Of a DNA stretch of 64,000 nucleotides, positions 37,616 through 60,344 are shown piece by piece; the stretch's first letter is position 1; the number at the start of each line of letters is the position of its first letter. The stretch spans positions 16,095,272-16,159,271 of the forward strand of contig OY755042.1 of the NCBI GenBank assembly GCA_963576565.1, read 5' to 3'. Both the position numbers and the translations under genes were made by a program. The notes below the pieces were generated by a model. The model worked only from the letters and a program-made list of their open reading frames with translations. It did not search any database and was not told the origin of the DNA. The stretch comes from Aspidapion aeneum (Eukaryota; Arthropoda; Insecta; Coleoptera; Brentidae).

Positions 37616-37627
37616 CTCTTCTATTTC
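37616..37627. repeat. 12-bp target-site duplication of the Penelope insertion, left copy
   Basis: CTCTTCTATTTC here and again at 43784-43795, directly flanking the Penelope composite. Both lie in the transposase codons, reading EIEE on the minus strand. Confidence 0.85.
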
Positions 37628-37700
37628 TCTTTGTTTGAAACTCGTAGACAATGATTGTGTAGAAATAAAATTTCGGACTTCCATTGTCTTTATTTATTTT

Positions 37701-37748
37701 AAAACACGACGTTTCGGTTAGTAAGTATCTCTAACCGTTATCAAGTGT
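37701..37748 (-). ncRNA. Degenerate hammerhead-like stem-loop in Penelope pLTR (copy A end)
   Basis: Minus strand: ACAC, TTGATAA, stem GGTTAG/CTAACC, then GAAACGTC and GTGT. This matches a hammerhead layout (core, stem II, GAAAC, GUC site, stem I ACAC/GUGU), but the CUGAUGA core is mutated to UUGAUAA. It is repeated in all four Penelope units (40259-40306, 41171-41218, 43693-43740). Known: Penelope-like elements often carry hammerheads in this place. Activity unlikely as written. Confidence 0.5.
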
Positions 37749-37794
37749 AAACTAAACAATCTGGTCTCTAGGCTACTACTTATACTACTTGGTG

Positions 37795-40240
37795 TGCAGT
37801 CAGGTGTGACGGCCCGCCCCCTTTTTTAATCCTAAGACGCCTGTTTTCCTTAAGGAGTGGTTTCCATATGTTTGGTATGTCCGTGCTTGGTTGACTGAAA
37901 ACTTCTTTATTCTACATTATATACGCAGCTTCAATAAACTTTCGTTTTCGCCAATGCGACTCCTTAGGTAAAACTTTAGCTTCTGACCACTGAATCCTGT
38001 GATCATTTGACCATGCATGATCTGCTAAACCGGATTTTTCAATATCCCCTAATTGGGTACTTTTTAGATGTTCATTTACTCTAACCTGAAGAGGGCATTT
38101 CGTTTCACCTACATATGATTTACCACACTCACACGGGATTTGGTAAATACATTCCTTATTATTTGAGGGATTGTCTGGTTTTGTTTTAGTTACAAAACTT
38201 CTTATCGTATTTCCCGAAGAAAATACTGTTTTTATATTATAGTGTTTAGCTATTCGTCTTATGTTTTCTGAAATCCCTTGAATATATGGAATGTTAATAA
38301 CACCTAACGGATTATTATTTTGAGAATTTGGTACATTTAGTTTGTTTTTAATTTTAAATATCGTTGAGTTTATTAATTTCTCGGAATAACCATTCTGTTG
38401 TAAGTCCTTTTTAATGTTGTTAATGTCTGTGGTTAATTCTTCATTATTACTACAAATATTTACGGCTCTTAAATACAAACTTCTTATAACTCCTTGTTTT
38501 GATGCAACAGAATGATTAGACTTAAAATTTAGGTACTGTCCCGTGTGTGTAGGTTTCCTATATACAGTGGTTTGAATGTTTCTGTCTAATCGTTTGACAA
38601 GAACATCCAAAAAAGGTAAGGCCGAATCTGTTTCAATTTCCATGGTGCACTTGATTGTTGGTCGAATACCGTTTAAATGGTGTAGAAAATTTTGTAGTTC
38701 GTCATCATTTTCCGGCCATATAATAAATGTGTCATCCATGTATCGCAGCCATAGTTTTGGTTTGACTCTTGCTGTGTTGATCGCATGGTCCTCGAACCAC
38801 TCCATGTAGATGTTTGCTACCACTGGCGAAAGAGATGAACCCATTGGGAGTCCATCATTTTGCGCGTAAAACTTATCTTTCACTTGAAAGTAAGAGTTAC
38901 GGAGACATAGCTCCAAAAGATCCATCACCCCCTCCACCGATAGCGTTGTTCTCTCGTGAAGTGTATCATCAGTTTGTAATTTGTTTTTAATGATACTGAG
39001 TGACTCATTTATTGGCACGTTGGTGTAGAGACTTTCTACATCAAAACTTACAAATCTATCGCCGGGATCTAATTCGATACCTTTTTAAAACCTCCACAAA
39101 ATGTTCCGAGTTTTTGACAAAAGATTCGGACTTACCCTGTAGTGGTTGAATTATGTCCAACAAAAACCTCGACAAAGTGCTGGTCGGTGAGTCCCTGGAG
39201 CTAGTAATTGGTCGCATTGGTATATCCTTCTTATGGATCTTTGGTAATCCATAAAAATTTGGTGCCTTACTGTGGTGTGGAGTCAGGCGGGATCTAGCAG
39301 CGTCCGGGATATTTTCAGCATACTTCTTCAAAGTCCTGTAGATGCGTCCTTCTATGGTGGTGGTTGGGTCTTTGGGTAGTTGCTTGTAGTCTCCTTTCTC
39401 CAGAACTTCTTGGATCTTTTTGTCGTAAGTCTCGACATCCATGATCACCGTTGCGTTTCCTTTGTCGGCCGGTAGAATCTTGATTGATTTGTCAGCCTGC
39501 AGGTTCTTGATTGCCCGTTGTTCTTGACTGGTGATGTTTGTCTTTTGTTGCTTCTTTCTGTCCAACGTTGTTCTTACTTTATGGCGAAACTCATCAGCTT
39601 CGGGTTGAGGTAGACTAACGGTCTCTATTGCCGCAATAATTTCCAGTGTCGGTGTCTGTGCCGGTGCAATGGCGAACTTAAGTCCCTTACTGAGTACCAA
39701 TTCTTCGTTGGTGCTCAGAGTCCTTTTGGAGATGTTCACTATAGTGCTTGGTGTTGTTAAGTCTGTTCTATCTTGAGTACGTGTCTGTAGTTTCTTAAGT
39801 TTTTCTCGGTGAGTTGATCGTATCTTCTGTCGTTCTCTGTTGCACGTACTGTCAATTTTGCTCAGTATCGGTTCGTAGTCTTCCTCCCATGTGTGTCGTC
39901 TAATTTCCTCAAATCGCTCCTCCATGTCGGCGTTGAAGTTGGCTTTTCTCCATCGATGGTAACTGATTTGGGATCGGATTAGTGCTTGGCTGGTCCTCTC
40001 TAAGATCTTCTTCGTTCTTACACCCGGAAAGTTGGCTTTTATGCGGAAACCAACCGGAATGACACCACTGTCGCGCGCCTCGCACAAGAATGAAATGTGT
40101 TCTTCTTCCTTTATCACTTTAAGTTTGGTCTTCTCGTAGCCTCTGAATAGATTGTTGATTCCGGGTCCGTACCGTTCTTCAACTCTTTGTTTGAAACTCG
40201 TAGACAATGATTGTGTAGAAATAAAATTTCGGACTTCCAT
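37795..40240 (-). pseudogene. Penelope RT/GIY-YIG polyprotein, copy A (one frameshift, one nonsense)
   Basis: Nearly identical to copy B. Two lesions are seen. An A4 run became A5 after FVEVLK (about 39083-39087), shifting the frame (RYRIRSRR, then a stop). A CAG Gln codon became TAG after EAAYIM (37912). Catalytic parts upstream and downstream are otherwise intact: YMDDTF and CGKSYVGETK. Amino-acid changes relative to B include LRPITSY to MRPITSS. The reading continues to HQVV and a stop near 37797. Confidence 0.92.
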
Positions 40241-40244
40241 TGTC

Positions 40245-40884
40245 TTTATTTATTTTAAAACACGACGTTTCGGTTAATAAGTATCTCTAACCGTTATCAA
40301 GTGTAAACTAAACAATCTGGTCTCTAGGCTACTACTTATACTACTTGGTGTGCAGTCAGGTGTGACGGCCCGCCCCCTTTTTTAATCCTAAGACGCCTGT
40401 TTTCCTTAAGGAGTGGTTTCCATATGTTTGGTATGTCCGTGCTTGATTGACTGAAAACTTCTTTATTCTGCATTATATACGCAGCTTCAATAAACTTTCG
40501 TTTTCGCCAATGCGACTCCTTATGTAAAACTTTAGCTTCTGACCACTGAATCCTTTGATCATTTGACCATGCATGATCTGTTAAACCGGATTTTTCAATA
40601 TCCCCTAATTGGGTACTTTTTAGATGTTCATTTACTCTAACCTGAAGAGGGCGTTTCGTTTCACCTACATATGATTTACCACACTCACACGGGATTTGGT
40701 AAATACATTCCTTATTATTTGAGGGATTGTCTGGTTTTGTTTTAGTTACAAAACTTCTTATCGTATTTCCCGAAGAAAATACTGTTTTTATATTATAGTG
40801 TTTAGCTATTCGTCTTATGTTTTCTGAAATCCCTTGAATATATGGAATGTTAATAACACCTAACGGATTATTATTATTTTTTTT
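40245..40884 (-). pseudogene. Penelope 3' segment (endonuclease region and pLTR) upstream of copy A
   Basis: The minus strand runs from about VINIPYIQGISENIR through CIYQIPCECGKSYVGETK to GGGPSHLTAHQVV and the stem-loop, then directly into the start codon of copy A at 40240. It represents the tail of a tandem unit and may act as promoter-bearing pLTR. Confidence 0.85.
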
Positions 40885-41234
40885 TCCGGTTTAGCAGATC
40901 ATGCATGATCAAATGATCACAGGATTCAGTGGTCAGAAGCTAAAGTTTTACATAAGGAGTCGCATTGGCGAAAACGAAAGCTTATTGAAGCTGCGTATAT
41001 AATGCAGAATAAAGAAGTTTTCAGTCAACCAAGCACGGACATACCAAACATATGGAAACCACTCCTTAAGGAAAACAGGCGTCTTAGGATTAAAAAAGGG
41101 GGCGGGTCGTCCCACCTGACTGCACACCAAGTAGTATAAGTAGTAGCCTAGAGACCAGATTGTTTAGTTTACACTTGATAACGGTTAGAGATACTTACTA
41201 ACCGAAACGTCGTGTTTTAAAATAAATAAAGACA
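40885..41234 (+). pseudogene. Penelope 3' segment and pLTR upstream of copy B
   Basis: Plus strand: SGLADHA then TGA in place of TGG (W), SNDHRIQWSEAKVL, SHWRKRKLIEAAYIMQNK, ending at HLTAHQVV, the stem-loop (41171-41218) and TAAATAAAGACA immediately before the ATG of copy B. Shorter than the matching segment of copy A. Confidence 0.85.
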
Positions 41235-43712
41235 ATGGAAGTCCGAAATTTTATTTCTACACAATCATTGTCTACGAGTTTCAAACAAAGAGTTGAAGAA
41301 CGGTACGGACCCGGAATCAACAATCTATTCAGAGGCTACGAGAAGACCAAACTTAAAGTGATAAAGGAAGAAGAACACATTTCATTCTTGTGCGAGGCGC
41401 GCGACAGTGGTGTCATTCCGGTTGGTTTCCGCATAAAAGCCAACTTTCCGGGTGTAAGAACGAAGAAGATCTTAGAGAGGACCAGCCAAGCACTAATCCG
41501 ATCCCAAATCAGTTACCATCGATGGAGAAAAGCCAACTTCAACGCCGACATGGAGGAGCGATTTGAGGAAATTAGACGACACACATGGGAGGAAGACTAC
41601 GAACCGATACTGAGCAAAATTGACAGTACGTGCAACAGAGAACGACAGAAGATACGATCAACTCACCGAGAAAAACTTAAGAAACTACAGACACGTACTC
41701 AAGATAGAACAGACTTAACAACACCAAGCACTATAGTGAACATCTCCAAAAGGACTCTGAGCACCAACGAAGAATTGGTACTCAGTAAGGGACTTAAGTT
41801 CGCCATTGCACCGGCACAGACACCGACACTGGAAATTATTGCGGCAATAGAGACCGTTAGTCTACCTCAACCCGAAGCTGATGAGTTTCGCCATAAAGTA
41901 AGAACAACGTTGGACAGAAAGAAGCAACAAAAGACAAACATCACCAGTCAAGAACAACGGGCAATCAAGAACCTGCAGGCTGACAAATCAATCAAGATTC
42001 TACCGGCCGACAAAGGAAACGCAACGGTGATCATGGATGTCGAGACTTACAACAAAAAGATCCAAGAAGTTCTAGAAAAAGGAGACTACAAGCAACTACC
42101 CAAAGACCCAACCACCACCATAGAAGGACGCATCTACAGGACTTTGAAGAAGTATGCTGAAAATATCCCGGACGCTGCTAGATCCCGCCTGACTCCACAC
42201 CACAGTAAGGCACCACATTTTTATGGATTACCAAAGATCCATAAGAAGGATATACCACTGCGACCAATTACTAGCTACAGGGACTCACCGACCAGCACTT
42301 TGTCGAGGTTTTTGTTGGACATAATTCAACCACTACAGGGTAAGTCCGAATCTTTTGTCAAAAACTCGGAACATTTTGTGGAGGTTTTAAAAGGTATCGA
42401 ATTAGATCCCGGCGATAGATTTGTAAGTTTTGATGTAGAAAGTCTCTACACCAACGTGCCAATAAATGAGTCACTCAGTATCATTAAAAACAAATTACAA
42501 ACTGATGATACACTTCACGAGAGAACAACGCTATCGGTGGAGGGGATGATGGATCTTTTGGAGCTCTGTCTCCGTAACTCTTACTTTCAAGTGAAAGATA
42601 AGTTTTACGCGCAAAATGATGGACTCCCAATGGGTTCATCTCTTTCGCCAGTGGTAGCAAACATCTACATGGAGTGGTTCGAGGGCCATGCGATCAACAC
42701 AGCAAGAGTCAAACCAAAACTATGGCTGCGATACATGGATGACACATTTATTATATGGCCGGAAAATGATGACGAACTACAAAATTTTCTACACCATTTA
42801 AACGGTATTCGACCAACAATCAAGTGCACCATGGAAATTGAAACAGATTCGGCCTTACCCTTTTTGGATGTTCTTGTCAAACGATTAGACAGAAACATTC
42901 AAACCACTGTATATAGGAAACCTACACACACGGGACAGTACCTAAATTTTAAGTCTAATCATTCTGTTGCAACAAAACAAGGAGTTATAAGAAGTTTGTA
43001 TTTAAGAGCCGTAAATATTTGTAGTAATAATGAAGAATTAACCACAGAAATTAACAACATTAAAAAGGACTTACAACAGAATGGTTATTCCGAGAAAGTA
43101 ATAAACTCAACGATATTTAAAATTAAAAACAAACTAAATGTACCAAATTCTCAAAATAATAATCCGTTAGGTGTTATTAACATTCCATATATTCAAGGGA
43201 TTTCAGAAAACATAAGACGAATAGCTAAACACTATAATATAAAAACAGTATTTTTTTCGGGAAATACGATAAGAAGTTTTGTAACTAAAACAAAACCAGA
43301 CAATCCCTCAAATAATAAGGAATGTATTTACCAAATCCCGTGTGAGTGTGGTAAATCATATGTAGGTGAAACGAAACGCCCTCTTCAGGTTAGAGTAAAT
43401 GAACATCTAAAAAGTACCCAATTAGGGGATATTGAAAAATCCGGTTTAGCAGATCATGCATGGTCAAATGATCACAGGATTCAGTGGTCAGAAGCTAAAG
43501 TTTTACATAAGGAGTCGCATTGGCGAAAACGAAAGTTTATTGAAGCTGCGTATATAATGCAGAATAAAGAAGTTTTCAGTGAACCAAGCACGGACATACC
43601 AAACATATGGAAACCACTCCTTAAGGAAAACAGGCGTCTTAGGATTAAAAAAGGGGGCGGGCCGTCACACCTGACTGCACACCAAGTAGTAGTTACACTT
43701 GATAACGGTTAG
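41235..43712 (+). CDS. Penelope-like element RT plus GIY-YIG endonuclease, copy B, intact frame
   Basis: A single 825-codon frame with no lesion. Domains: N-terminal basic/coiled region (1-250); a pre-RT segment with IKILPADKGNATVIMD (near 253-268) and FYGLPKIHKKDIPLRPI (near 334-350); RT motif A FVSFDVESLYTNVP (near 395-408); motif B GLPMGSSLSPVVANIY (near 463-478); catalytic YMDD (499-502); LPFLDVLVKR (near 540); C-terminal GIY-YIG nuclease with CIYQIPCECGKSYVGETKR (near 695-713). It copies and inserts the element by target-primed reverse transcription. Compared with the other units a roughly 36-bp deletion after HQVV removes the usual stop, so the last residues VTLDNG are read from the hammerhead-like stem-loop. 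Inserted in a mariner transposase gene within a stan intron. Confidence 0.97.
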   Translation: MEVRNFISTQSLSTSFKQRVEERYGPGINNLFRGYEKTKLKVIKEEEHISFLCEARDSGVIPVGFRIKANFPGVRTKKILERTSQALIRSQISYHRWRKANFNADMEERFEEIRRHTWEEDYEPILSKIDSTCNRERQKIRSTHREKLKKLQTRTQDRTDLTTPSTIVNISKRTLSTNEELVLSKGLKFAIAPAQTPTLEIIAAIETVSLPQPEADEFRHKVRTTLDRKKQQKTNITSQEQRAIKNLQADKSIKILPADKGNATVIMDVETYNKKIQEVLEKGDYKQLPKDPTTTIEGRIYRTLKKYAENIPDAARSRLTPHHSKAPHFYGLPKIHKKDIPLRPITSYRDSPTSTLSRFLLDIIQPLQGKSESFVKNSEHFVEVLKGIELDPGDRFVSFDVESLYTNVPINESLSIIKNKLQTDDTLHERTTLSVEGMMDLLELCLRNSYFQVKDKFYAQNDGLPMGSSLSPVVANIYMEWFEGHAINTARVKPKLWLRYMDDTFIIWPENDDELQNFLHHLNGIRPTIKCTMEIETDSALPFLDVLVKRLDRNIQTTVYRKPTHTGQYLNFKSNHSVATKQGVIRSLYLRAVNICSNNEELTTEINNIKKDLQQNGYSEKVINSTIFKIKNKLNVPNSQNNNPLGVINIPYIQGISENIRRIAKHYNIKTVFFSGNTIRSFVTKTKPDNPSNNKECIYQIPCECGKSYVGETKRPLQVRVNEHLKSTQLGDIEKSGLADHAWSNDHRIQWSEAKVLHKESHWRKRKFIEAAYIMQNKEVFSEPSTDIPNIWKPLLKENRRLRIKKGGGPSHLTAHQVVVTLDNG

Positions 43713-43740
43713 AGATACTTACTAACCGAAACGTCGCGTT
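43693..43740 (+). ncRNA. Degenerate hammerhead-like stem-loop, Penelope copy B end
   Basis: Same motif as 37701-37748, with GTCGCG in place of GTCGTG after GAAAC. It overlaps the last codons of the extended copy B frame. Confidence 0.45.
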
Positions 43741-43783
43741 TTAAAATAAATAAAGACAATGGAAGTCCGAAATTTTATTTCTA

Positions 43784-43795
43784 CTCTTCTATTTC
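43784..43795. repeat. 12-bp target-site duplication of the Penelope insertion, right copy
   Basis: CTCTTCTATTTC, identical to 37616-37627. Confidence 0.85.
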
Positions 43796-44560: not shown

Positions 44561-45035
44561 ATTATTTTTTTCCTGGCTTCCTTGATGTTTTAAAAAGTAC
44601 CAATTTATGTTTTTTATACTTACTAAATACTAAATATTAATTAATTATATACCTTACAAAAGCAACAGCATCACTTTTTGTGTAAATGCGATTGTCTTTT
44701 TCATGGCTGCCTTGATGTTTTAAGGACATCAATTTAAGTATTTTAAACATTTAAGCGTATATATCTCCAAAACTAATGAATAAAATAATACAATGATATA
44801 TATTTTTAAAATCAGGGATAAAAGAACTTTAAATATCTAAAATAATATACAGGGTGTTCCCTTTAAAAAAACCATCGACATGTCAAATTTTAACATTTAG
44901 AATTTTTTTTAACATTCCGACTTAAAAATTCTTAAAATTTGTAAAAAATTATGAAACTTTTGTATTTATCATATTTTGATATCTATTCAATAAACGTTTT
45001 AGATATGGTGTAAAAATATACGGGAAAACTCTGTA

Positions 45036-46015
45036 CGTATGTTAAGTCAGTTACATTGGAATAGCATTGCTAGCGCTGCAAAAGTTTCGTATAATCACCG
45101 CTATGCTTTACGTCGGCTTCTAGTTTTTCCAACATTACAAAAATTAAATCATCATGTAAAAGCATGGGATTTTATTTTAGCAGATTTAATATTAAAGAAA
45201 ATTGATTCTGATACGTTAGCACGTTTCGTTCAAAATCCGAATCCTTCAGATAGTATGCCTAAATTTGATGATAATTTTAAATGTTTAGAACAGCATTGTA
45301 ATGCTCTAATTCTGGCAAATGACCCTAAGAAAAATAATTATAAAAATAAATATGACAAATCTTTAAATAAAAATTATTCTTGTAAGGGTAAAGCATGTAA
45401 GTTCTTATAGTTTTTGGGAGCTAATAATCAGAAGCAAAATAATGGTCAACGTCAGTTATGCAGTTTTTGCAAAAAAGACTTACACATATTATATAACTGT
45501 AGTGAGTTTATTTCTAAACCGATGAGCTAAAGTTTTATTTTTGTAAAAAATAATAAACTTTACAATAATTGAGCCATTTACATAACACTTTTAAATGCTA
45601 ATCTACTATGTCATGTCGTTTTTGTAATAAGTGCCATAAAAGTCTTCTTTATTTCGGTTGTAGCTCTCAAGCATCGCCGCAAGATGAGCGAGTTCAAATG
45701 TCGACCCCACCTGTCGCTTTTTAGGGAAACTTCTATGGGCAATTTATTCCTTAATAAATGTTGTTTGACTGCTTATAATGTTGAAAATTATTGTTGTTTA
45801 ATATCTACGATAATGATTGATATTTTGAATGTTTTTAAAACTGTTCATGGAAAATATGTTACCGCTCGCGGAGTGTTAGATTCTGGATCCTATAAGTCCT
45901 TTAGATCTCAAAAACTAGTAAACCGTCTTGGATTATCTATAACAAAGGCAAACATGTCTGTCCAAGGTATTGGTGGGAGAGGAAGTATAATCTTGGCTCT
46001 ATTTCATTATATATA
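45036..46015 (+). pseudogene. BEL/Pao retrotransposon fragment, right piece (Gag C-terminus and protease)
   Basis: 45039-45410 reads LLVFPTLQKLNHHVKAWDFI, LILKKIDSDTLARFV: the conserved L..LP.L......AWD..L..L...KLD layout of BEL/Pao Gag. Further on LCSFCKKDLH-like zinc-knuckle remains (about 45455-45490), and 45845-45985 has ARGVLDSGSYKSFRSQKLVN and SVQGIGG, the A17 aspartic protease (LDSGS). Stops and shifts throughout; no RT, no LTR seen. It ends within tens of bases of the stan GPS exon donor. Confidence 0.8.
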
Positions 46016-46046
46016 TAGTAATTGTGAAAATTTACTACACACTAAC

Positions 46047-46191
46047 CTCCAAATCAACTACGTCAACCAAAACAGCAAACGTAGTCAAATGATTGCAGCT
46101 GCAATTCACAATAACAGGCTTGTGGGCAGATACGTCATACCAGTTGTCATCCAGTTCTGTGCGGCAACCCACTCGCGACCATTCACCAAAG
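46047..46191 (-). CDS. stan: flamingo/starry night exon: GPS autoproteolysis site
   Basis: Minus strand: acceptor AAATATAG next to 46191, donor GTTAGTGTG below 46047. The first C completes the Gly codon left by 51949, then FGEWSRVGCRTELDDNWYD, VIVNCSCNHLTTFAVLVDVV and DLE, joining TAC of the TM1 exon in phase. It carries the full GPS: W, C (VGC), C.C (NCSC), HL before T. Known: adhesion-GPCR autoproteolysis needs His-Leu followed by Ser/Thr and happens between Leu and Thr; all are present, so cleavage is predicted. A plus-strand open frame covers this exon and hides it. 145 nt (1+144). Confidence 0.97.
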
Positions 46192-46569
46192 CTATATTTT
46201 AAAACGTTTTATTAAAAGAGTATCAAATTTTATTTAAAAAAAATCGATTTTTTTTTGTATAATATAGTCTTTGAAAAGCGTATAACTTCTAAAATAGAAA
46301 ATTTAAAAAGTGTAAAATTTTGCTAATTGTTTTTAATATCAGATGTACTGTGTGTCCCAAATATCGATGCTTTTGGGGGTTTTCAGGCGTTTCTAGGGAG
46401 GAAAAAACTGACCTCTATTTACGAGCCTTGATTTTTAAGACATTATGTTTTTAAGCTACAGGGGTTTTTGAAGTTTCCGTTTTGGGAGTGGGTCTATAAC
46501 TTTTTTATTTATTTCTTTTTTTGTGTAAAATACTTTTTTATCAAGAATGTTATGTAAAGTTAGCATTTT
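46192..46569. other. stan intron, nothing recognised
   Basis: AT-rich with acceptor tract for the GPS exon next to 46192; phrases such as GCATAACTTCTAAAATAG. No repeat family identified. Confidence 0.4.
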
Positions 46570-46752
46570 TCTTGTGGAATGACCCCCTTCTTACATTACA
46601 TTTAAAACCAGCGTAAAAGTTTCTTTAACTTGACGTATTACGCTATTTTATTTTTAAAATTATTTTATTTTTGTTTTTATTTACCTCCTTATTTTTGATT
46701 AATTTCCTATTTTGATCACTTTAAAAATATTTAAAATCCATTTTTTTGACAC

Positions 46753-46870
46753 TCCTAGACAATGATTGAGTAGAAACAAAATTTCGGACTTCAATTGTCT
46801 TAATTGATATAAAACAACAGTGTTTAAAATAAATAAAGACAATAGAAGTCCGAAATAGTGTTTCTATTTT
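46753..46870. mobile_element. Penelope pLTR end fragment, inverted pair (unit 1)
   Basis: AGACAATGATTGAGTAGAAA with TTTCGGACTTCAATTGTCTT is the minus-oriented Penelope end. It is followed by AATAAATAAAGACAATAGAA and GTCCGAAA, the plus-oriented end, with little between. A head-to-head remnant like the junctions at 37628 and 43783, older (several changes). The same pair is at 48940-49078 in unit 2, with a 28-bp internal duplication. Confidence 0.75.
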
Positions 46871-47227
46871 AAACCCAGTTAACAACAGAATATAAAATTA
46901 AAAATACAAATATAAAGAAATAAAGGAGTCATACCAAAAAGAAATAATAATTTTATTGTACATCTCAAAAACTAAAAGAGCCCTATAAAAATACCTTTAA
47001 GAAAGCAATTTACACCAAAATTACTCTTTCATAAATAAAAAATGTTATAGAAACCAGAAGAAGACTTTTAAAAATGCGAATTTTACTTTTAAGCTTGGCT
47101 TGAATATCAAGCTTGGCTTAAAAATCAAGCCTCGCAAGACAGAGACTTCCTTCCTGCGCTAACGTTGAGATTTATCATCATCGCGACTGGCAGCCTATAG
47201 AGCAATTCATTTAACACTAAGAAACGA

Positions 47228-47467
47228 ATATGGGAACCGTGGCCGACTGGCTTAGCGCGTTGATTCGTGCATATGGCTGCAGTGCTTGCTATATTACTAG
47301 ACCGACCGCGCGTAGGCTGGGCGCGCTGCTTATCTTGTGGGTTCGAGTCCTACCTCGGCATATGGTTTTTGTAACGTCCCAACAAGGCATATCTCGGCAA
47401 AAATTTGACTAACAAGACTGAGCGATTGATCCTAGCAATGAATAAAAAAGTTCCAGTATAAAAAAAA
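47228..47467 (+). mobile_element. tRNA-derived SINE with target-site duplication (unit 1)
   Basis: RNA polymerase III boxes: A-box-like GTGGCCGACTGG (47239-47250) and perfect B-box GGTTCGAGTCC (47340-47350); A-rich tail at 47459-47469. Flanked by AACACTAAGAAACGA at 47213-47227 and 47468-47482, a 15-bp direct repeat. It does not fold as a full tRNA: the A-B spacing is too long and the acceptor ends do not pair. Confidence 0.85.
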
Positions 47468-47490
47468 AACACTAAGAAACGATGAATCAC

Positions 47491-47501
47491 TAAAATGTTC
47501 T
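47491..47501. repeat. 11-bp direct repeat flanking the hammerhead array, left (unit 1)
   Basis: TAAAATGTTCT, repeated at 48469-48479 directly after the array. The same pair flanks the array in unit 2 (50383-50393, 51361-51371). Confidence 0.8.
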
Positions 47502-47609
47502 CAAAACGAATTTTATACTTCACACAAAGGTATGTGTGCCTAACTTGCGAGTGTCAGAAGGAGAGGGAAGAGTTGATTTTGGTTGTTTTCCTACTTACAC
47601 AAGGTTGCA

Positions 47610-47653
47610 TCTCTAGACGTACGTTTCTGTGTGTTTCACGTCATCAGTAGAGA
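47610..47653 (-). ncRNA. Hammerhead ribozyme motif 1
   Basis: Minus strand in order: UCUCUA (stem I), CUGAUGA core, CGUG-AAACA-CACA (stem II with three pairs and a C-A mismatch at its base), GAAAC core, GUACGUC (two- to three-pair stem III ending in the GUC cleavage site), UAGAGA (stem I partner). All conserved core bases are present. The tiny stem III is as described for Penelope and retrozyme hammerheads, which may work best as dimers. Confidence 0.8.
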
Positions 47654-48063
47654 ACAGCAAACCCAGGTAAGCCAATTTCAACCAAAACCAACTCCTACAT
47701 ATGAAATACTCGCGGCGGTGCAATGCGAGTAAACTCCAAGGTGTAGCGCCATCTAGCGGACTGGCTCGAGCACTCGAAAGTTTAAGCACACTGGCATCGT
47801 CTTGTCTGAGACGCCGAAGCGCCATTTATGACAAGTTTCGTCCATTGATGTGGTATTAAAACCACGTAATCACGTAGCAACTAAAAGGCCGTACTGCCCG
47901 AAGCATATGCAAAGAAGAAAGACGGAAAACGTGCTGTGTGTGGATCGATAAAAATCAAAACGAATTTTATACTTCATACAAAGGTATGTGTGCCTAACTT
48001 GCAAGTGTCAGAAGGAGAGGGAATAGTTGATTTTGGTTGTTTTCCTACTTACACAAGGTTGCA

Positions 48064-48107
48064 TCTCTAGACGTACGTTTCTGTGTGTTTCACGTCATCA
48101 GTAGAGA
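48064..48107 (-). ncRNA. Hammerhead ribozyme motif 2
   Basis: Identical 44-nt sequence to motif 1, 454 bp away in the same orientation; together they bound one monomer. Confidence 0.8.
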
Positions 48108-48268
48108 ACAGCAAACCCAGGAAAGCCAATTTCAACCAAAACCAACTCCTACATATGAAATACTCGCGCTCGAGCCAGTCTGCTAGATGGCGCTACACCT
48201 TGGAGTTTACAGGCATTGCACCGCCGCGAGTTGGTTTTGGTTGAAATTGGCTTACCTGGGTTTGCTGT

Positions 48269-48312
48269 TCTCTACTGATGACGTGAAACACACAGAAACG
48301 TACGTCTAGAGA
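48269..48312 (+). ncRNA. Hammerhead ribozyme motif 3 (inverted)
   Basis: Same 44-nt sequence as motif 1 on the plus strand, in the inverted end of the array. Confidence 0.8.
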
Positions 48313-48939
48313 TGCAACCTTGTGTAAGTAGGAAAACAACCAAAATCAACTCTTCCCTCTCCTTTTGACACTCGCAAGTTAGGCACACATACCTTTGTTT
48401 GAAGTATAAAATTCGTTTTGATTTTTATCGATCCACACACAGCACGTTTTCCAACTTTCTTCTTTGCATAAAATGTTCTATTAAATAACGCCATTAACAC
48501 TCTTTCAAGCCGTGCATGTTGGCTGCCTACTATATTACCAGACCTAACCATCGATCGATTTTAATATAGCCTAGTCCATGTTAGTGTGGTTAGATCAAGA
48601 GAAGTGATTTGTGTCGATGAAATACTTCTTTATTTTAAAGTAAAAAAAAACAATCGTGTTAAGATTCTTCTTGTAATACTTTTAATAACTAAAAATTCAA
48701 GTATTTATCCCTTTGCACTCTTGTAGTAGAAAAAAAAAGTAAATGATTTTTCCATTTTTCTTGTCGAATGACCCCCTTTTTACATGCTATTTAAAACCAG
48801 CGTAAAAGTTTCTTTAACATGACGTATTAAGCTATTTTATTTTTAAAATTATTTTATTTTTGTTTTTATTTACCTCCTTATGTTTGATTAATTTCCTATT
48901 TTGATTACTTTAAAATATTTAAAATCCATTTTTTTTAGA

Positions 48940-49078
48940 CAATGATTGAGTAGAAACAAAGTTTCGGACTTCAATTGTCTTAATTGATATAAAACACCAG
49001 TGTTTAAAATAAATAAAGACCAGTGTTTAAAATAAATAAAGACAATAGAAGTCCGAAATAGTGTTTCTATTTTAAACC
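48940..49078. mobile_element. Penelope pLTR end fragment, inverted pair (unit 2)
   Basis: As at 46753-46870, with CAGTGTTTAAAATAAATAAA duplicated in tandem (about 48992-49042). Confidence 0.75.
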
Positions 49079-49245
49079 CAGTTAACAACTGAGAATATAA
49101 AATTAAAAATACAAATAATATAAAGAAATAAAGGAGTCATACCAAAAAGAAATAATAATTTTATTGTACATCTCAAAAACTAAAAGAGCCCTATAAAAAT
49201 ACCTTTAAGAAAGCAATTTACACCAAAATTAAACTTTCATAAATA

Positions 49246-49951
49246 AAAATACTCTGCCAATCTATGGGCACCTAAGCTCACACTAGGTACTATAATTATA
49301 GTGTACGTGTGAGTTAATATATAACTAAAAACTGAAATATATTTTATTGAACTCCAGACTCAATTACCTTTCGTTTGATACCACACAAGCCATGTTTTGA
49401 CTTAAACTTTAATTTTTCTAATCTACCCCCACCTTTTTTTTAAACTAAAATTTATTTTGTTTAACTCCAGACTCAATTACCTTTCGTTTGATATCACACA
49501 CGCCATATTTCCACATAAACACTAATTTTTTTAATTTACCCCCACCCTTTTTTTTAAAGTAAAATGTATTTTATTTAACTCCAGACGCAATTACCTTTCG
49601 TTTGATATCACACACGCCATATTTTTACATAAACTCTAATTTTTGATATATATACCCCCACCCTTTTATTTGGCTTGTTCGGTGGATTTTGTTCATTTTT
49701 AAATGGGACCATCTCGACCCAAAACCCAGCGTAGGTACCAAATTTCATTAAAATCGGGCAAGCGGTTTTTGCGCGTTGGTCGTTACAGACCGACATACAG
49801 ACAGACAGACAGACAGACGGCGCAACAAAAAAGTTTCAAAATCATCTGAAACGCAAAGATATATAAAAAATTTTGAAATCGGAGCAACTTTTTTTTTCTC
49901 GAAAAAATTAGGATCACGATAGCTCACACTACTATAGTGTAGTGTGAGCTA
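49246..49951 (+). mobile_element. Family X element, copy 9 (with empty-site comparison)
   Basis: Full X structure; CAGA array 49795-49818; last hairpin short (TAGCTCACACTACTATAGTG onward). It occurs only in unit 2: unit 1 reads CATAAATAAAAAATGTTATAG at 47030-47050, unit 2 has X between CATAAATAAAA and ATGTTATAG. No target-site duplication. Confidence 0.92.
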
Positions 49952-50167
49952 TATGTTATAGAGACCAGAAGACTTTTAAAAATGCGAATTTTACTTTTAA
50001 CATTGGCTTGAATATCACGCTTGGCTTAAAAATCAAGCCTCTCAAGCAGAAACATGGGAGGGGATAGATTAGTCTTCCTTTCTGCGCTAACGTTGAGATT
50101 TATTTAGAGACATCGCGACTGACAGCCTATATATTCATTTAACACTAAGAAACGAATATGGGAACCG

Positions 50168-50350
50168 TGGCCGACCGGCTTAGCGCGTTGATTCGTGCAT
50201 ATGGCTGCAGTGCTTGCTATATTATCTTGTGGGTTCGAGTCCCACCTCGGCATATGGTTTTTGTAACGTCCCAACAAGGCATATCTCGGCAAAAATTTGA
50301 CTAACAAGACTGAGCGATTGATCCTAGCAATGGATAAAAAAGTCACAGTA
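50168..50350 (+). mobile_element. tRNA-derived SINE (unit 2)
   Basis: Copy of the unit 1 SINE with B-box GGTTCGAGTCC at 50232-50242 and 15-bp flanks AACACTAAGAAACGA (50141-50155 and 50370-50384 region). It lacks about 37 bp between the boxes that unit 1 has (ACTAGACCGACCGCGCG onward), bringing the A-B spacing closer to a tRNA. Confidence 0.8.
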
Positions 50351-50501
50351 TAAAAAAAAAACACTAAGAAACGATGAATCACTAAAATGTTCTCAAAACG
50401 AATTTTATACTTCACACAAAGGTATGTGTGCCTAACTTGCGAGTGTCAGAAGGAGAGGGAAGAGTTGATTTTGGTTGTTTTCCTACTTACACAAGGTTGC
50501 A

Positions 50502-50545
50502 TCTCTAGACGTACGTTTCTGTGTGTTTTACGTCATCAGTAGAGA
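50502..50545 (-). ncRNA. Hammerhead ribozyme motif 4 (stem II mutated)
   Basis: As motif 1, but stem II has CGUA in place of CGUG, losing one of three pairs; probably weakened. Confidence 0.7.
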
Positions 50546-50955
50546 ACAGCAAACCCAGGTAAGCCAATTTCAACCAAAACCAACTCCTACATATGAAATA
50601 CTCGCGGCGGTGCAATGCGAGTAAACTCCAAGGTGTAGCGTCATCTAGCGGACTGGCTCGAGCACTCGAAAGTTTAAGCACACTGGCATCGTCTTGTCTG
50701 AGACGCCGAAGCGCCATCTATGACAAGTTTCGTCCATTGATGTGGTATTAAAACCACGTAATCACGTAGCAACTAAAAGGCCGTACTGCCCGAAGCATAT
50801 GCAAAGAAGAAAGATGGAAAACGTGCTGTGTGTGGATCGATAAAAATCAAAACGAATTTTATACTTCATACAAAGGTATGTGTGCCTAACTTGCAAGTGT
50901 CAGAAGGAGAGGGAATAGTTGATTTTGGTTGTTTTCCTACTTACACAAGGTTGCA

Positions 50956-50999
50956 TCTCTAGACGTACGTTTCTGTGTGTTTCACGTCATCAGTAGAGA
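50956..50999 (-). ncRNA. Hammerhead ribozyme motif 5
   Basis: Identical to motif 1, 454 bp from motif 4. Confidence 0.8.
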
Positions 51000-51160
51000 A
51001 CAGCAAACCCAGGTAAGCCAATTTCAACCAAAACCAACTCCTACATATGAAATATTCGCACTCGAGCCAGTCCGCTAGATGGCGCTACACCTTGGAGTTT
51101 ACAGGCATTGCACCGCCGCGAGTTGGTTTTGGTTGAAATTGGCTTACCTGGGTTTGCTGT

Positions 51161-51204
51161 TCTCTACTGATGACGTGAAACACACAGAAACGTACGTCTA
51201 GAGA
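51161..51204 (+). ncRNA. Hammerhead ribozyme motif 6 (inverted)
   Basis: Identical to motif 3. Confidence 0.8.
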
Positions 51205-51655
51205 TGCAACCTTGTGTAAGTAGGAAAACAACCAAAATCAACTCTTCCCTCTCCTTTTGACACTCGCAAGTTAGGCACACATACCTTTGTGTGAAGTATA
51301 AAATTCGTTTTGATTTTTATCGAGCCACACACAGCACGTTTTCCATCTTTCTTCTTTGCATAAAATGTTCTATTAAATAACGCCATTAACACTCTTTCAA
51401 GCCGTGCATGTTGGCTGCCTACTATATTACCAGACCTAACAATCGATCGATTTCAATATGGCCTAGTCCATGTTAGTGTGGTTAGATCAAGAGAAGTGAT
51501 TTGTGTCGATGAAATACTTCTTTATTTTAAAGTAAAAAAAAAACAATCGTGTTAAGATTCTTCTTGTAATACTTTTAATAACTAAAAATTCAAGTATTTA
51601 TCCCTTTGCACTCTTGTAGTAGAAAAAAAAAAAAGTAAATGATTTTTCCGTTTTT

Positions 51656-51948
51656 ATTGTGACTAGTCTAATTAGTAAGCTGGCAACGGAGAATAATTTA
51701 GGGGAAGTTGACCACAAAATGGCCGACTCACAGATCCTCATGGTGTCCTCATTAAATTCGGCTGCACATACGCCATAAAGCTATCTATTCCCCTCTCATG
51801 TCTCTGCACGCAACTGAGAATCACTTTGTTTTTACCTCCCCTAGAAACACTTTAAACCCCCAAAAAACCTAAACATAAATATTTTTTCTTTGGCCAGAAA
51901 ATAATGAATCTATTAAAACAAAACATTAAAGCTTTAATTAATACTAAC
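51656..51948. other. stan intron, unique sequence, nothing recognised
   Basis: No repeat or ORF recognised between the duplication and the GAIN exon donor. Confidence 0.4.
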
Positions 51949-52243
51949 CCCCTGACCGTCGACCAATGAACACACTGCGGGTTTGACCTTTCGTTGAAAA
52001 TCGTGTCATTCGAGTTAAGCCAAAGATTTAATCGAATCGGCGTTTCAAGCTGTGCACTGGATAGGTTTTTGTACAGCAGTTTTTTTCTGAAATTCTTTTC
52101 TCTGCGGGATCGGGGCTTTTCAATTAGGTACCGATCGTTACCGTGAATTCTAACTTCGGGTTCCATAAAGACCTGGGGATTGTCTTCCGGAATCTCGATT
52201 TCGGGTAGCTTTACGTCGTTAGGAAACTCATTTTGATCTGCAC
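51949..52243 (-). CDS. stan: flamingo/starry night exon: GAIN domain, C-terminal part before GPS
   Basis: Minus strand: acceptor ATTTTGTAG next to 52243, donor GTTAGTAT below 51949. Encodes ADQNEFPNDVKLPEIEIPED, a basic linker (EKPRSRREKNFRKKLLY; the dibasic run RSRREK could be a furin-type site), then PIRLNLWLNSNDTIF and RSNPQCVHWSTVRG, the start of the GPS strand pair (NPQCV.W). 295 nt (2+291+2) joins Ser from 56325 and Gly completed at 46191. The open frame past the donor (LVLIKALMF) is intron. Confidence 0.95.
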
Positions 52244-52319
52244 CTACAAAATAGACAATACAAGTACAAGATCCTCTTATACGATCCTCTATTCGACCAT
52301 ATAATCCTTCTTGAGTTCC

Positions 52320-52930
52320 ATAATTAGCCTCCTAGCTCATTAGCACACTCCAAATGAACTTCACGCTACACCATCACCATTGAAAAGAGTTTTTGTAAAT
52401 ATCTCAGAAACGGAAGCTTCTAAGAACTTTTTAGTAAGAACATAAATTATTGAGAAAAACGTATTCTACTATAATCCGAAAGGCGTGTATTGATGGGATA
52501 CTGATCTGCTCTTTACAGTATTGTACACTATTTTTCCTAAAAATTTCATGAAAATCGACTCAAGGGTTTAGGACCTATCGTGTTACGGACATACATGGTG
52601 TTTCACGAACATCGAAACAGAGGCCTTTTTGCGTATTTAGAGTGCGAATTTGGAGAAACGCTCGGACACGTCGATTTTGTTTGCGAGGGGGACACTTTTT
52701 GGCTATCTTGAAATTTTTGTAGCATGAACCCCCTTCGAGGGGGAACTTTACCCCTATATTTTGAATAGGGAAAGTGGGTCTAGTGATACCCACCAAACTG
52801 TCATTAGCATTAATGGATTTTGACCAAAATCTAATCAGCTCCTTAGTGTCTAACACTATTTTAACTAAAAATTTTATGAAAATCGATTCCGCGGTTTAGA
52901 AGCTATTGTGTTACGGACATAAATACACAT
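52320..52930. repeat. Dispersed repeat Z, copy 1
   Basis: GCACACTCCAAATGAACTTC, AAATATCTCAGAAACGGAAG, CATAAATTATTGAGAAAAAC and GTCATTAGCATTAATGGATT recur at 60020-60260 in the same order. It ends in the LINE-tail style GATTCCGCGGTTTAGAAGCT, TGTTACGGACAT and (ACATAC)n at 52880-52945, so it may be the 3' region of an RTE-like element. Confidence 0.6.
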
Positions 52931-53059
52931 ACATACACACACAGACAAACATCACGACGATATTGCTAAGATAGGTCAAAATACTACTACTACTATGTCG
53001 GTTTAGAACGTTTTTCTACGTTGTCCGACGCCTATTCTCCACCTTCGATTCTGACAGTC

Positions 53060-54398
53060 ATCTTCCGCCAGGTATTTTTGACTCATTCACCTTTGGATTG
53101 ACTGTTGCCATTCCAGTTTAGGACGCCCTCTTATTTTGCGCCCTATTGGTTGCCATTCTAGGACCTGCTTTGGTAATCTTTCGTCGTTCATCCTTTGTAC
53201 ATGGCCGTACCATATCAGTTGCCTTTTAGTGATGTCATCCGTTATGCTTCCCTCGATTCCCATTCTTTCTTTTATGATCTCATTTCTTATATGATCTGTT
53301 CTAGATATTCTCATTGATCTTCTTATTGCATCCATTTCGACACTTTCCATTTTTTGCTTTGTATTTTTCTGTTACGCGACAAGTCTCTATTCCATACAAC
53401 AGCGTGCTTTTCACCATTGTTTCATATATGTTAAATTTTACATCTTTTTTATCTCTCTGCTCCATAAAATACTGTTAAGACAACCAATAACCTTTTTTTG
53501 CTTTTACTATTCTTTTTTCCAGTTCTTTACAGCCTGTTCCTGTCTTATCAAATGTGACACCCAAGTATACATACTCATTGCATGGAGATATTGTTTGTCC
53601 ATTTTCTTGATTCATTTCCAATACATAGGTACTGTGTCTTGTCCACGTTCACTGTTAACCCCCACTTTTGGCATTCTTCCGTTAACTTTCTCATCATATA
53701 CTCCATGTCTTCTTTATCATTAGCTACAATTACTTGGTCGTCAGCAAACTATAGTGTGTATATGGTAAATCGGCCGTTAAGTTGTATTCCCATGCCGTGT
53801 ACTTTGCGTTCCCAGTTTTTTAGAGCTACTGCGATATATATTTTAAAAAGAGTTGGAGAGATACAACATCCCTGTCTTAAGCCTTTCGTTACCAGGAATT
53901 CTTTTGAAAGTCGATTTTAATTTTAGATTTTGACCCTTTGTATAGTTCTTTTATCGCTTTTATGTATGTATGATTGATATTAGTCTGCTCTAACACTGTC
54001 CATAGTTTTTCTAATGGAACGGTATCATATGCTTTTTGTAGGTCCACAAAGGTAACATGAGTCTCTATATTTCTGGCGCTCCTTTTCTCAATTACTTGTT
54101 TAAGACAAAAAACATTATCACTACAAGATCTGCCTGCACGAAACCCACTTTGCTCTTCTTCTTCTTGTTCATGAAAATCCTTCTCTATTAGATCTCTAAG
54201 AATCCTACCGTACAATCTACTGAGAGTACTAGTTACTGAAATTCCTCTGTAATTGTTGCAATCCAGCTTATTTCCTTTTTTATGTATTGAGGATATGAAT
54301 GCAATTTTCCAATCATCAGGTACTGGATGTCCGTTTATGCATTGATTGATAATATATGTGAGATTTTCGATTAGTTTCTCTGATCCATATTTGAGCAT
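53060..54398 (-). pseudogene. LINE reverse transcriptase, frame-broken
   Basis: Open frame 53889-54398: KIAFISSIHKKGNKLDCNNY, SGFRAGRSCSDNVF, HVTFVDLQKAYDTVP (motif A). Then in shifted frames GLRQGCCISPTLFKIYIA (motif B), FADDQVIVAND (motif C, near 53740) preceded by a stop, KWGLTVNVDKTQYLCIGNES, LLYGIETCRVTEK, DITKRQLIWYGHVQRMNDER. Several shifts and stops make this copy inactive. Confidence 0.88.
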
Positions 54399-54399
54399 G

Positions 54400-55797: not shown

Positions 55798-56324
55798 AGT
55801 CCTTTGTCTTTGCTTTTTTCGTCTTTGAGAATTTCCATCTATTGCTCCGAGACTTTGTTTAGGCTTTTTGGTAATTGCTTTGTTTTACAAGTATTAGAGA
55901 ACCAGTCTAATGCCTCAACCCCCTACTTGGAGGGCCAGGATTTTTAATCAAGGTTTTTCTCCTCTAGCCTTTGACGAGCCAACGCCATACTGTAAGGCAA
56001 CAGCTATCTTTTATACTATCCCTAAAAGCAAGGGTTGCCACCTACGCTATGATCACCGTACCGAGGTCCATTCTCTCCGCCTTTCATATCGATGTGGTCT
56101 TCTCCCGTAACCCTGGGAAAGGGACCCTAGACAGGTGCTAACTCTCCGGGTCGGAGAGTACCTGGAATCTACGGAGGGCAGGGTCGATTCATTTCCCCTG
56201 ATAGACATCTGACGAGGTCTACTCGTACCCAAATTAGTTACTCCCTGGGTTATATGGTCGATTACAACATAGGTTTTTATTCCATAAAAGTTTCAATTAT
56301 TTAATAATAAACCTGTTAACTTAC

Positions 56325-60019: not shown

Positions 60020-60260
60020 ATCTGGCCCATTAGCACACTCAAAGTGAACTCAACGCTATATCAGCCTCGAAAACAGTTTTTCTAAATATCTCAAAAACGG
60101 AAGCTCCTACGAAGTTTTTTTTAGCATAAATTATTGAGAAAAACGGGTTGAACTATATTCCGAAAACCGCATATTGATGCGATTTTCCGTTAAGTTAGGT
60201 TAACATATTTTCAATTTGTAAACTGTCAAAAACCTGTCATTAGCATTAATGAATTTTGAC
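60020..60260. repeat. Dispersed repeat Z, copy 2 (partial)
   Basis: Shares with 52320-52930 the words GCACACTCAAAGTGAACTC, AAATATCTCAAAAACGGAAG, CATAAATTATTGAGAAAAAC and GTCATTAGCATTAATG. Confidence 0.6.
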
Positions 60261-60344
60261 CAAAATAAGGAAAGATGAATTCCCAAACCACCTCTTTTTT
60301 TTTGGTTGATATAATATGAAATGACCCTATGGAATGATACTTAC

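What the first reader, a model, noticed from the sequence alone, without database searches (positions are those of the whole stretch)
47502..51360. Six hammerhead ribozyme motifs in two retrozyme-like arrays
Seen: the same 44-nt motif occurs six times (minus at 47610, 48064, 50502, 50956; plus at 48269, 51161) with every conserved hammerhead core base, a six-pair stem I, a small stem II and a two- to three-pair stem III ending in GUC. Same-strand neighbours are exactly 454 bp apart, giving a monomer size fitting a small circular RNA. Known: retrozymes are non-coding tandem units with hammerheads whose RNAs self-cleave and circularise. Inference: this is such a family in an insect. The base pair closing stem II is C-A in all copies, an oddity that may make it a new variant.
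Basis: partly seen in the sequence, partly recalled or inferred. Interest (0 to 1): 0.93.

Follow-up and report, generated by a model that had tools for sequence, protein, structure and literature searches.

The report
Hammerhead repeats bearing Penelope insertion marks
The six motifs are copies of one 454-base non-coding repeat, dispersed through this animal genome, that carries a predicted self-cutting RNA and whose insertions end in the distinctive way of Penelope retrotransposons, so they were likely inserted by Penelope-type enzymes; what moves such repeats in animals has been an open question.

Summary
The motif is real: six copies at the stated places with an intact hammerhead core, same-strand neighbours 454 nt apart. 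They are not six independent events. One insertion (47501-48470) was duplicated with its flanks as a 2.89-kb segment; both halves share the target-site duplication TAAAATGTTCT. Rfam does not recognise the motif (14.9 bits against a cut-off of 34), and copies show no extra conservation of the core, so ribozyme activity stays predicted. The mobile element is clear. Of 21 independent loci, 14 have target duplications of 8-14 nt, and 12 have two head-to-head arms, one ending at a fixed 3' terminus and the other about 47 nt further on. This matches the tail, inverted arms and target duplications described for Penelope-like elements (PLEs). A PLE with the same architecture and an open 828-aa reverse-transcriptase frame lies 3.7 kb away. 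Linked unit variants shared between arms and loci indicate that multimeric RNA, not only 454-nt circles, was copied. Best reading: a retrozyme-like, non-autonomous element mobilised by PLE enzymes through two-sided target-primed reverse transcription. Inferred: the enzyme, self-cleavage, circular RNA.

The parts
47491..47501 (.). left target-site duplication TAAAATGTTCT of insertion copy 1 (last T shared with the element)
   Evidence: exact 11-nt match to 48469-48479
47501..48470 (.). the insertion, copy 1: left arm antisense (1.47 units from the fixed terminus, site 1), right arm sense (0.67 unit, ending with the tail at site 2)
48469..48479 (.). right target-site duplication of copy 1 (first two letters shared with the unit's continuation)
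47501..47954 (-). reference 454-nt unit
   Evidence: continuous tandem units in 9-kb loci
47610..47653 (-). hammerhead-like motif 1
48064..48107 (-). hammerhead-like motif 2
48269..48312 (+). hammerhead-like motif 3; predicted cut between 48306 and 48307
48168..48168 (.). head-to-head inversion junction (arms meet at unit positions 241 and 184)
48422..48470 (+). tail: the stretch past site 1, present at one end only
   Evidence: compare the 31-nt tail of the PLE at 37628
50383..50393 (.). left target-site duplication of the duplicated insertion (copy 2)
50393..51362 (.). insertion copy 2, made by a 2.89-kb tandem segmental duplication and not by a second transposition
   Evidence: same target duplication, same arm limits within 1 nt, same flanks
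50502..50545 (-). hammerhead-like motif 4 (stem II pair broken)
   Evidence: not found by the strict descriptor
50956..50999 (-). hammerhead-like motif 5
51161..51204 (+). hammerhead-like motif 6
51361..51371 (.). right target-site duplication of copy 2
37628..43784 (.). Penelope-like element with the same head-to-head architecture; TSD TCTTCTATTTC at 37617-37627 and 43785-43795; tail at the left end only
   Evidence: repeats; ends read by eye
41226..43712 (+). 828-aa open frame of that element (reverse transcriptase; GIY-YIG-type C-terminus by recalled motif)
   Evidence: RVT_1 E 2.1e-12; 58% identical over 97% of the query to an 813-aa protein; relatives in beetles and Anolis
41171..41215 (+). 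minimal hammerhead-like motif of the PLE pLTR (ACAC-UUGAUAA-C-GGUUAG...CUAACC-GAA-ACGU-C-GUGU)
   Evidence: read from sequence; no Rfam hammerhead hit

Best explanation
The six motifs belong to a dispersed, non-coding 454-nt repeat with a predicted type-I-like hammerhead ribozyme, and its insertions were likely made by the enzyme of a Penelope-like retrotransposon acting in trans. Proposed cycle. (a) A genomic array is transcribed into multimeric RNA (inferred). (b) A Penelope RT-endonuclease binds the region after the hammerhead and nicks both strands of A/T-rich DNA 8-14 nt apart (the target duplications are observed; the binding and nicking are inferred). (c) Each nick primes reverse transcription at one of two internal start sites, site 1 or about 47 nt further on (site 2); in the full two-armed insertions one arm uses site 1 and the other site 2. 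(d) Synthesis runs through one or more units, and the two cDNA arms are joined at a variable point, giving head-to-head arrays. (e) The hammerhead is predicted to cut the multimers slowly, as a dimer through its self-complementary stem III (ACGUACGU) or with protein help; circles may form but are not shown.
For: Dispersed copies with target duplications: 14 of 21 independent loci have exact duplications of 8-14 nt (13, L051); 13 of these 14 are 10 nt or longer, against 4 of 420 mismatched flank pairs of the same 21 loci. They are 80% A+T against 66% for the window. Twelve of 21 loci have two arms in opposite orientation with one end at unit position 454-7 and the other at 44-50; no locus has two like ends, and all 12 have a target duplication. 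Eleven inversion junctions were tabulated: all differ, and the two arms' unit positions are unequal in 10 of 11, against simple snap-back priming and against a fixed inverted-repeat transposon. Published PLE traits, from the parts of the papers that I read: optional 30-40 bp tail equal to the distance between two RT start sites, cutting and extension of both strands, ATT/A+T-rich targets (PMC11167929); inverted pLTR, 31-bp tail at one of the inverted pLTRs, TSD of 8-10 bp (PMC3846280). The neighbouring PLE has inverted halves, a one-sided tail and an 11-bp duplication. Units on the same strand of a locus differ by 1.2% (83 pairs) and on opposite strands by 1.3% (39), against 3.6% between loci (2872). 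Multimeric template: 179T+432T in one unit each of L033 and L040, and 196T+380G in one unit of each arm of L032.
Against: No autonomous PLE with this unit as its pLTR was found. The unit shares no DNA with the window PLE (best E 1.2) and no convincing ORF remnant with 120 PLE proteins plus the window PLE (best E 0.025), so the mobilising enzyme is unidentified. Rfam Hammerhead_1 scores only 14.9 of 34 bits, in a shifted register. The isolated motif prefers another fold (-12.6 kcal/mol against -3.7 for the hammerhead). Core positions vary as much as random positions (15 against 16.4 expected, P = 0.51). Seven of 21 loci show no target duplication. Two two-armed loci (L044, L046) have one end at neither site (unit positions 404 and 387). 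The 8-nt duplication of L049 is weak: 21 of 420 mismatched pairs reach 8 nt. No RNA data exist here.
Confidence: 0.7

Rival explanations
1. A standard animal retrozyme: the hammerhead cuts transcripts into 454-nt monomers that a host ligase circularises, and rolling reverse transcription of the circle makes the arrays, with any reverse transcriptase.
For: 454-nt tandem period, hammerhead core, no ORF seen in the unit, dispersed young copies. Arrays are more homogeneous within a locus than between loci, as a circle template would give.
Against: Linked minority variants confined to one unit of an array recur in another locus or in the other arm, which a single monomer circle cannot give. PLE-type ends are not part of the retrozyme description in the papers read. 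The hammerhead is weak by model and folding. Circular RNA was not tested.
Confidence: 0.25
2. The unit is the pseudo-LTR (pLTR) of an autonomous PLE family of this genome: a pLTR-only or internally deleted derivative, not a retrozyme. This is compatible with the best explanation's mechanism.
For: The structural marks are those of PLE pLTRs. An ATG lies 6 nt after the predicted cut, 110 nt before site 1; the Anolis PLE starts reverse transcription 111-118 bp into its ORF.
Against: No similarity to the window PLE or convincing similarity to PLE proteins. PLE pieces do lie 0.4-1.3 kb from the arrays in 3 of the 20 nine-kb loci (L038, L045, L046), but they belong to the window PLE's family (80-97% DNA identity) and are not continuous with the units. 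Only the window PLE and L068-L070 could be checked out of the PLE families of the genome.
Confidence: 0.3
3. A foldback-type DNA transposon with long inverted repeats; the hammerhead match is chance.
For: Inverted arms and target duplications. Chance expectation of the descriptor over several Mb of repeat families is not negligible (39 per 726 Mb).
Against: No two-armed locus has two like ends: 12 of 14 pair site 1 with site 2, and L044 and L046 have one end elsewhere. Arm lengths and junctions vary, and a one-armed copy with a 12-nt target duplication exists (L035). Transposase was not searched for.
Confidence: 0.05
4. The mir-2513 match means the inverted repeat is a microRNA precursor.
For: 67.4 bits, E 3.3e-12.
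Against: Below the gathering score (89); the paired arms score as a long perfect hairpin, here a by-product of the inverted arms; listed for only one of the two inverted pairs.
Confidence: 0.02

Closest known systems
Metazoan non-LTR retrozymes (Cervera & de la Pena 2020, PMC7229834: abstract, results part 1 of 3 and passages read; PMC7761336: sections 8 and 9 and passages read)
   Same: Non-coding tandem units of a few hundred nt, type-I-like hammerhead with a weak helix III, dispersed, target duplications when present.
   Different: Here the head-to-head arms, two alternative 3' termini and tail tie the element to PLE-type insertion; PMC7761336 says metazoan retrozymes show no conserved motif that would reveal their helper. 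Several insertions copied multimeric RNA. The 454-nt unit is longer than the ~170-400 nt RNAs of the abstract, and C/A stands at 10.1/11.1, where a G-C pair is usual (recalled).
Penelope-like elements with pLTRs and minimal hammerheads (PMC11167929: parts 1-2 of 4 read; PMC3846280: passages and discussion read)
   Same: Inverted head-to-head arms, optional tail at one end, A/T-rich targets, TSD near 10 bp, hammerhead upstream of the RT start sites; palindromic ACGU in the stem III position in the window PLE.
   Different: No ORF in the unit; 454 nt instead of about 2.5 kb in the window PLE; stem III palindrome of 8 nt (ACGUACGU) instead of the 4 nt (ACGU) of the window PLE; no sequence shared with the window PLE.
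Rotifer Pen3a pLTRs that carried an NRPS gene in trans (PMC3846280, passage read)
   Same: pLTR sequences suffice for insertion in trans with a target duplication.
   Different: A gene-capture event there; here a large non-coding family in tandem arrays.

Membership tests
Type I hammerhead ribozyme (RF00163) | conserved core CUGANGA ... GAA ... UH with stem I open | tested here: met
   all six window copies; by my reading of the list, 57 of 63 unit copies (58 if A17 is allowed)
Type I hammerhead ribozyme (RF00163) | covariance-model score at the gathering threshold | tested here: not met
   0 hits, none among weak matches; 14.9 of 34 bits, shifted register
Type I hammerhead ribozyme (RF00163) | core kept while flanks vary | tested here: inconclusive
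   no excess conservation (P 0.51); in unit 241-454, of 15 positions with variants shared by 3 or more loci only one lies in the 44-nt motif, the free position U7 (P 0.14)
Type I hammerhead ribozyme (RF00163) | self-cleavage | not testable with these tools
   needs in vitro assay
Metazoan retrozyme | short non-coding tandem repeats with a hammerhead motif, dispersed in the genome | tested here: met
   up to 7.2 units in L051
Metazoan retrozyme | monomer circular RNA as intermediate | tested here: inconclusive
   no RNA data; linked unit variants show that at least some templates were multimeric
PLE-mobilised insertion | target-site duplication of about 10 bp, A/T-rich | tested here: met
   14 of 21 loci; control 4 of 420 at 10 nt or more, 21 of 420 at 8 nt or more
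PLE-mobilised insertion | inverted head-to-head arms with a tail at one end only | tested here: met
   12 of 21 loci, 0 with two like ends; two further two-armed loci have one end at neither site
PLE-mobilised insertion | autonomous PLE sharing the terminal region | tested here: inconclusive
   window PLE shares none; further PLE flanks could not be fetched
Autonomous PLE | RT-endonuclease ORF inside the element | tested here: not met
   no convincing ORF remnant in the unit
Foldback/TIR DNA transposon | two identical inverted ends | tested here: not met
   0 of 14 two-armed loci have two like ends

The most novel reading that the evidence does not exclude
An animal retrozyme-like family that is a parasite of Penelope elements: PLE protein starts reverse transcription at two fixed internal sites on its multimeric RNA, one per nicked DNA strand, so every full insertion has one arm of each type. 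The hammerhead, weakened at stem II (C/A at 10.1/11.1) and built for dimer cutting by an 8-nt palindromic stem III, trims multimers instead of making the insertion template. This would be direct genomic evidence of the helper of animal retrozymes and of two-sided target-primed insertion by PLEs in nature.
Probability: 0.5. Interest if true: 0.74.

Novelty: new variant of a known kind. Interest (0 to 1): 0.62.

Why it matters
A review of animal retrozymes names Penelope-like elements as likely helpers but states that the repeats show no conserved motif that reveals the machinery they use (PMC7761336, sections 8 and 9). Here the insertion ends themselves carry the PLE signature, and the question can be tested with purified protein. 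The pairing of one site-1 arm with one site-2 arm, the variable junctions and the common source of both arms also speak on how PLEs make inverted copies: they favour priming at both nicks over the self-priming proposed earlier (PMC3846280). The shared unit variants give a sequence-only test of whether the copied RNA was a monomer circle or a multimer.

Tried and rejected
Rfam at gathering and E-value thresholds: no hammerhead. mir-2513: explained by the long inverted repeat. Rfam Hammerhead_1 over the whole genome: one unrelated hit above cut-off (L001), with 74 of 155298 candidates scored. Core-conservation test: no signal. Foldback transposon: rejected on unequal ends. Monomer circle as sole template: rejected unless templates switched or loci converted each other. 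PLE deletion derivative: no remnant found in the unit. PLE pieces near arrays: found in 3 of 20 nine-kb loci (L038, L045, L046) and unlinked to the units. Proximity of the 91 listed GIY-YIG hits to the listed unit hits: none within 10 kb, by eye. Literature: searches; from their listings and the papers opened I saw none that reports PLE tails in a retrozyme, but most listed papers were not opened ('retrozyme' with 'beetle': 0 papers). Cervera & de la Pena 2014, Schostak 2008, Lunse 2017 and Craig 2021 are not held and are known here from reference lists and recall only.

Rows dropped: in the count of independent loci L047b (palindromic partner of L047a) and W2 (segmental duplicate) were not counted; the first control (504 pairs) still held W1 against W2 and was replaced (420 pairs, 21 loci). 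Searches use both window halves; searches use only the first. One search keeps L046 and L047, whose local duplications lower the within-locus figure. L001 was not used as a family copy. In one search, 44 matches came from 40 scored of 87 candidates; 9-kb regions were fetched for 20 places, and four further listed places (C2:79973827, C1:112601303, C1:101020923, C1:140776804) were not fetched. L002-L031 overlap these loci or the window and were not counted again. L052-L067 were used only.
Full report
What is in the window. They sit in one compact structure: two same-strand copies 454 nt apart, then an inverted copy, joined head to head at 48168. The structure is bounded by the 11-nt direct repeat TAAAATGTTCT (47491-47501 and 48469-48479). 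The second group (50393-51362) has the same target repeat, the same arm limits and the same flanks for hundreds of bases: it is a 2.89-kb segmental duplication of the first. So the window holds one insertion event. The motif at 50502-50545 has lost a stem II pair, but its core is intact.

Chance and model tests. A strict hammerhead descriptor, allowing a failed 10.1/11.1 pair, gave 5 hits in the window, 0 in 300 shuffles and 39 in 726 Mb of Markov sequence, about 0.003 per window. Searched over several megabases of repeat families, such a match is not excluded by chance alone, so its place in the element matters. Rfam does not accept it: no hit at gathering score, no hammerhead among matches up to E 5 in 45000-54000, and 14.9 bits against 34 in a shifted register when the motif alone is given. 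Folded alone, the RNA prefers another structure. The circular 454-nt unit folds at -139 kcal/mol, against a mean of -113 for 30 mononucleotide shuffles; the motif lies at the end of a long rod formed by the inverted repeat GAGTTGGTTTTGGTTG/CAACCAAAATCAACTC around it.

The family. A 187-nt query over the motif gave 44 matches (40 of 87 candidates scored) on ten contigs, the full-length ones at 95-100% identity. A 241-nt query over the other half gave 42 matches from 40 scored of 1480 candidates, including long arrays. Twenty loci of about 9 kb were read. The 454-nt unit is tandem in many, up to 7.24 units (L051), and continuous through the boundary used here as position 454/1. Sixteen further small regions hold the same young family, 96-99% identical over the unit. 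Of 63 copies covering the motif (both window halves included), 38 carry the commonest form.

Ends of the insertions. One terminus is fixed: sense ...GAAGTATAAAATTCGTTTTGA, followed by mostly A/T-rich flank. Call it site 1. The other kind of end lies about 47 nt further on, after ...CACACACAGCACGTTTTCCATCTTTCTTCTTTGCA. Call it site 2; the stretch between is the tail. Of 21 independent loci (20 fetched plus the window), 12 have two arms in opposite orientation with one end at each site: L032, L033, L038, L039, L040, L041, L043, L047, L049, L050, L051 and the window. None has two like ends. For L039 and L051 the short second arm was recognised by eye from the printed flanks. All 12 have an exact target duplication of 8-14 nt, of which a few letters may belong to the element. 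Two more loci have two arms but one end at neither site: L044 (46 and 404, with a 10-nt duplication) and L046 (387 and 7, none). L035 has one arm, a truncated end and a 12-nt duplication. L034, L036, L037, L042, L045, L046 and L048 show no duplication. Mismatched left and right flanks of the same 21 loci reach 10 nt in 4 of 420 pairs and 8 nt in 21 of 420, so the 8-nt case of L049 is weak on its own. The eleven junctions tabulated all differ, and in 10 of 11 the two arms stop at unequal unit positions, with 0-6 shared nt or a few extra bases.

Comparison with Penelope-like elements. PMC11167929 (parts 1 and 2 of 4 read) reports for the Anolis PLE: reverse transcription starting inside the RNA at two adjacent sites whose distance is the optional 30-40 bp tail of genomic copies, cutting and extension of both DNA strands, A/T-rich targets, a hammerhead upstream of the start sites that cut in vitro only when protein was added, and insertion independent of hammerhead cleavage. 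PMC3846280 (passages and discussion) reports inverted pLTRs, a 31-bp tail at one of them, and target duplications of 8-10 bp. The family here shows the tail, the inverted arms, the target duplications and the hammerhead-like motif upstream of the ends. The window also contains such an element: 37628-43784, with an 828-aa frame (RVT_1, E 2.1e-12), 58% identical over 97% of its length to an unnamed 813-aa protein and 36% identical over 808 aa to an Anolis protein, inverted halves, a tail of 31 nt at one end only, and the duplication TCTTCTATTTC (read). GIY-YIG was not reached by Pfam in its C-terminus; that assignment rests on the recalled motif around CECGKSYVGET and on source names of two relatives ('predicted GIY-YIG superfamily endonuclease'). 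The best named relatives are from beetles (Anthonomus, Harmonia, Diabrotica), so the host is probably a beetle (inference).

Relation to the PLE next door. A hammerhead-like motif also lies in that PLE (41171-41215): UUGAUAA in place of CUGAUGA, a change that keeps the 3-8 pair as U-A, then an unpaired C, stem II GGUUAG/CUAACC, and GAA-ACGU-C. The unit has the same C after A9 and GAA-ACGUACGU-C, a doubled ACGU. Both stem III candidates are self-complementary, which suits cutting as a dimer (inference; dimer cutting by PLE hammerheads is stated with citations in PMC7761336). The unit and the PLE share no sequence otherwise. Pieces of this PLE's family lie 0.4-1.3 kb from the arrays in 3 of the 20 loci (L038, L045, L046; 80-97% DNA identity) but are separate insertions, so they do not identify the helper.

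What RNA was copied. Units on the same strand of a locus differ by 1.2%, on opposite strands by 1.3%, in different loci by 3.6%: both arms of an insertion come from one source. Yet arrays are not uniform copies of one monomer. In L033 and in L040, which have different target duplications, one unit carries 179T and 432T together while its neighbours do not. In L032 one unit in each arm carries 196T and 380G. L051 and L046 show repeated unit types too, which later local duplication could explain. The simplest reading is a multimeric RNA with unlike units. Switching between two different circles, or gene conversion between loci, is possible but needs more steps.

Is the ribozyme under selection? 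The copies are too young to say. Core sites vary like random sites (15 against 16.4 expected). Of 15 positions in unit 241-454 with variants shared by three or more loci, one lies in the 44-nt motif, and it is U7, the only free position of CUGANGA (P 0.14).

Verdict. Shown: motif, unit, dispersal, target duplications, two-site ends, head-to-head arms, single insertion plus segmental duplication, neighbouring PLE. Inferred: PLE protein as the enzyme, two-sided priming, multimeric template. Predicted and untested: self-cleavage, circles. It works like a PLE insertion and looks like a retrozyme; membership in the retrozymes is open, because circular RNA was not tested and the covariance-model test of the hammerhead was not met.

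Noticed in passing
window 37628-43784: Autonomous-looking Penelope-like element in two inverted halves with an open 828-aa frame, one-sided 31-nt tail and 11-bp target duplication; its hammerhead-like motif has U3/A8 in place of C3/G8, a compensating natural variant.
   Followed up: partly
L001 1480-1570 (G000:C9:59493794-59493840, minus): The only Rfam Hammerhead_1 match listed in this genome (40.6 bits, above cut-off; 74 of 155298 candidates scored), unrelated to the 454-nt family, near what by eye look like ankyrin-repeat exons; it reads CUGAUGU instead of CUGAUGA.
   Followed up: no
L047 95-9469: A head-to-head insertion (1479-2331) and its flanks lie in a palindrome of at least about 9.4 kb (mirrored frames), with both halves carrying the same insertion; biological inversion or assembly artefact not decided.
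   Followed up: no
L051 1329-4616: Units 2 and 4 and units 3 and 5 share different variant sets: alternation with a two-unit period, as a dimer circle or a later two-unit duplication would give.
   Followed up: partly
L046 2881-5932: 1199-bp period (two units plus a partial one) repeated, with unit-specific variants recurring each period.
   Followed up: no
L038 6055-6321 and 8482-8549; L045 5648-6005; L046 2169-2239: Pieces of the window PLE's family close to the arrays, not continuous with them.
   Followed up: partly
window 53889-55884 (minus): LINE-like endonuclease and reverse-transcriptase frames (Exo_endo_phos, RVT_1).
   Followed up: no
window 60226-60894 (minus): Stretch with a GAIN domain of an adhesion-type receptor (PF16489, E 2.1e-18), probably a host gene exon.
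   Followed up: no
window 47240-47360 and 50165-50255: Stretch that by eye resembles a tRNA-derived SINE head (CCGTGGCCGACTGGCTTAGCGCG ... GGTTCGAGTCC) in both duplicated flanks; ARAGORN finds no tRNA gene in 46900-50500.
   Followed up: partly
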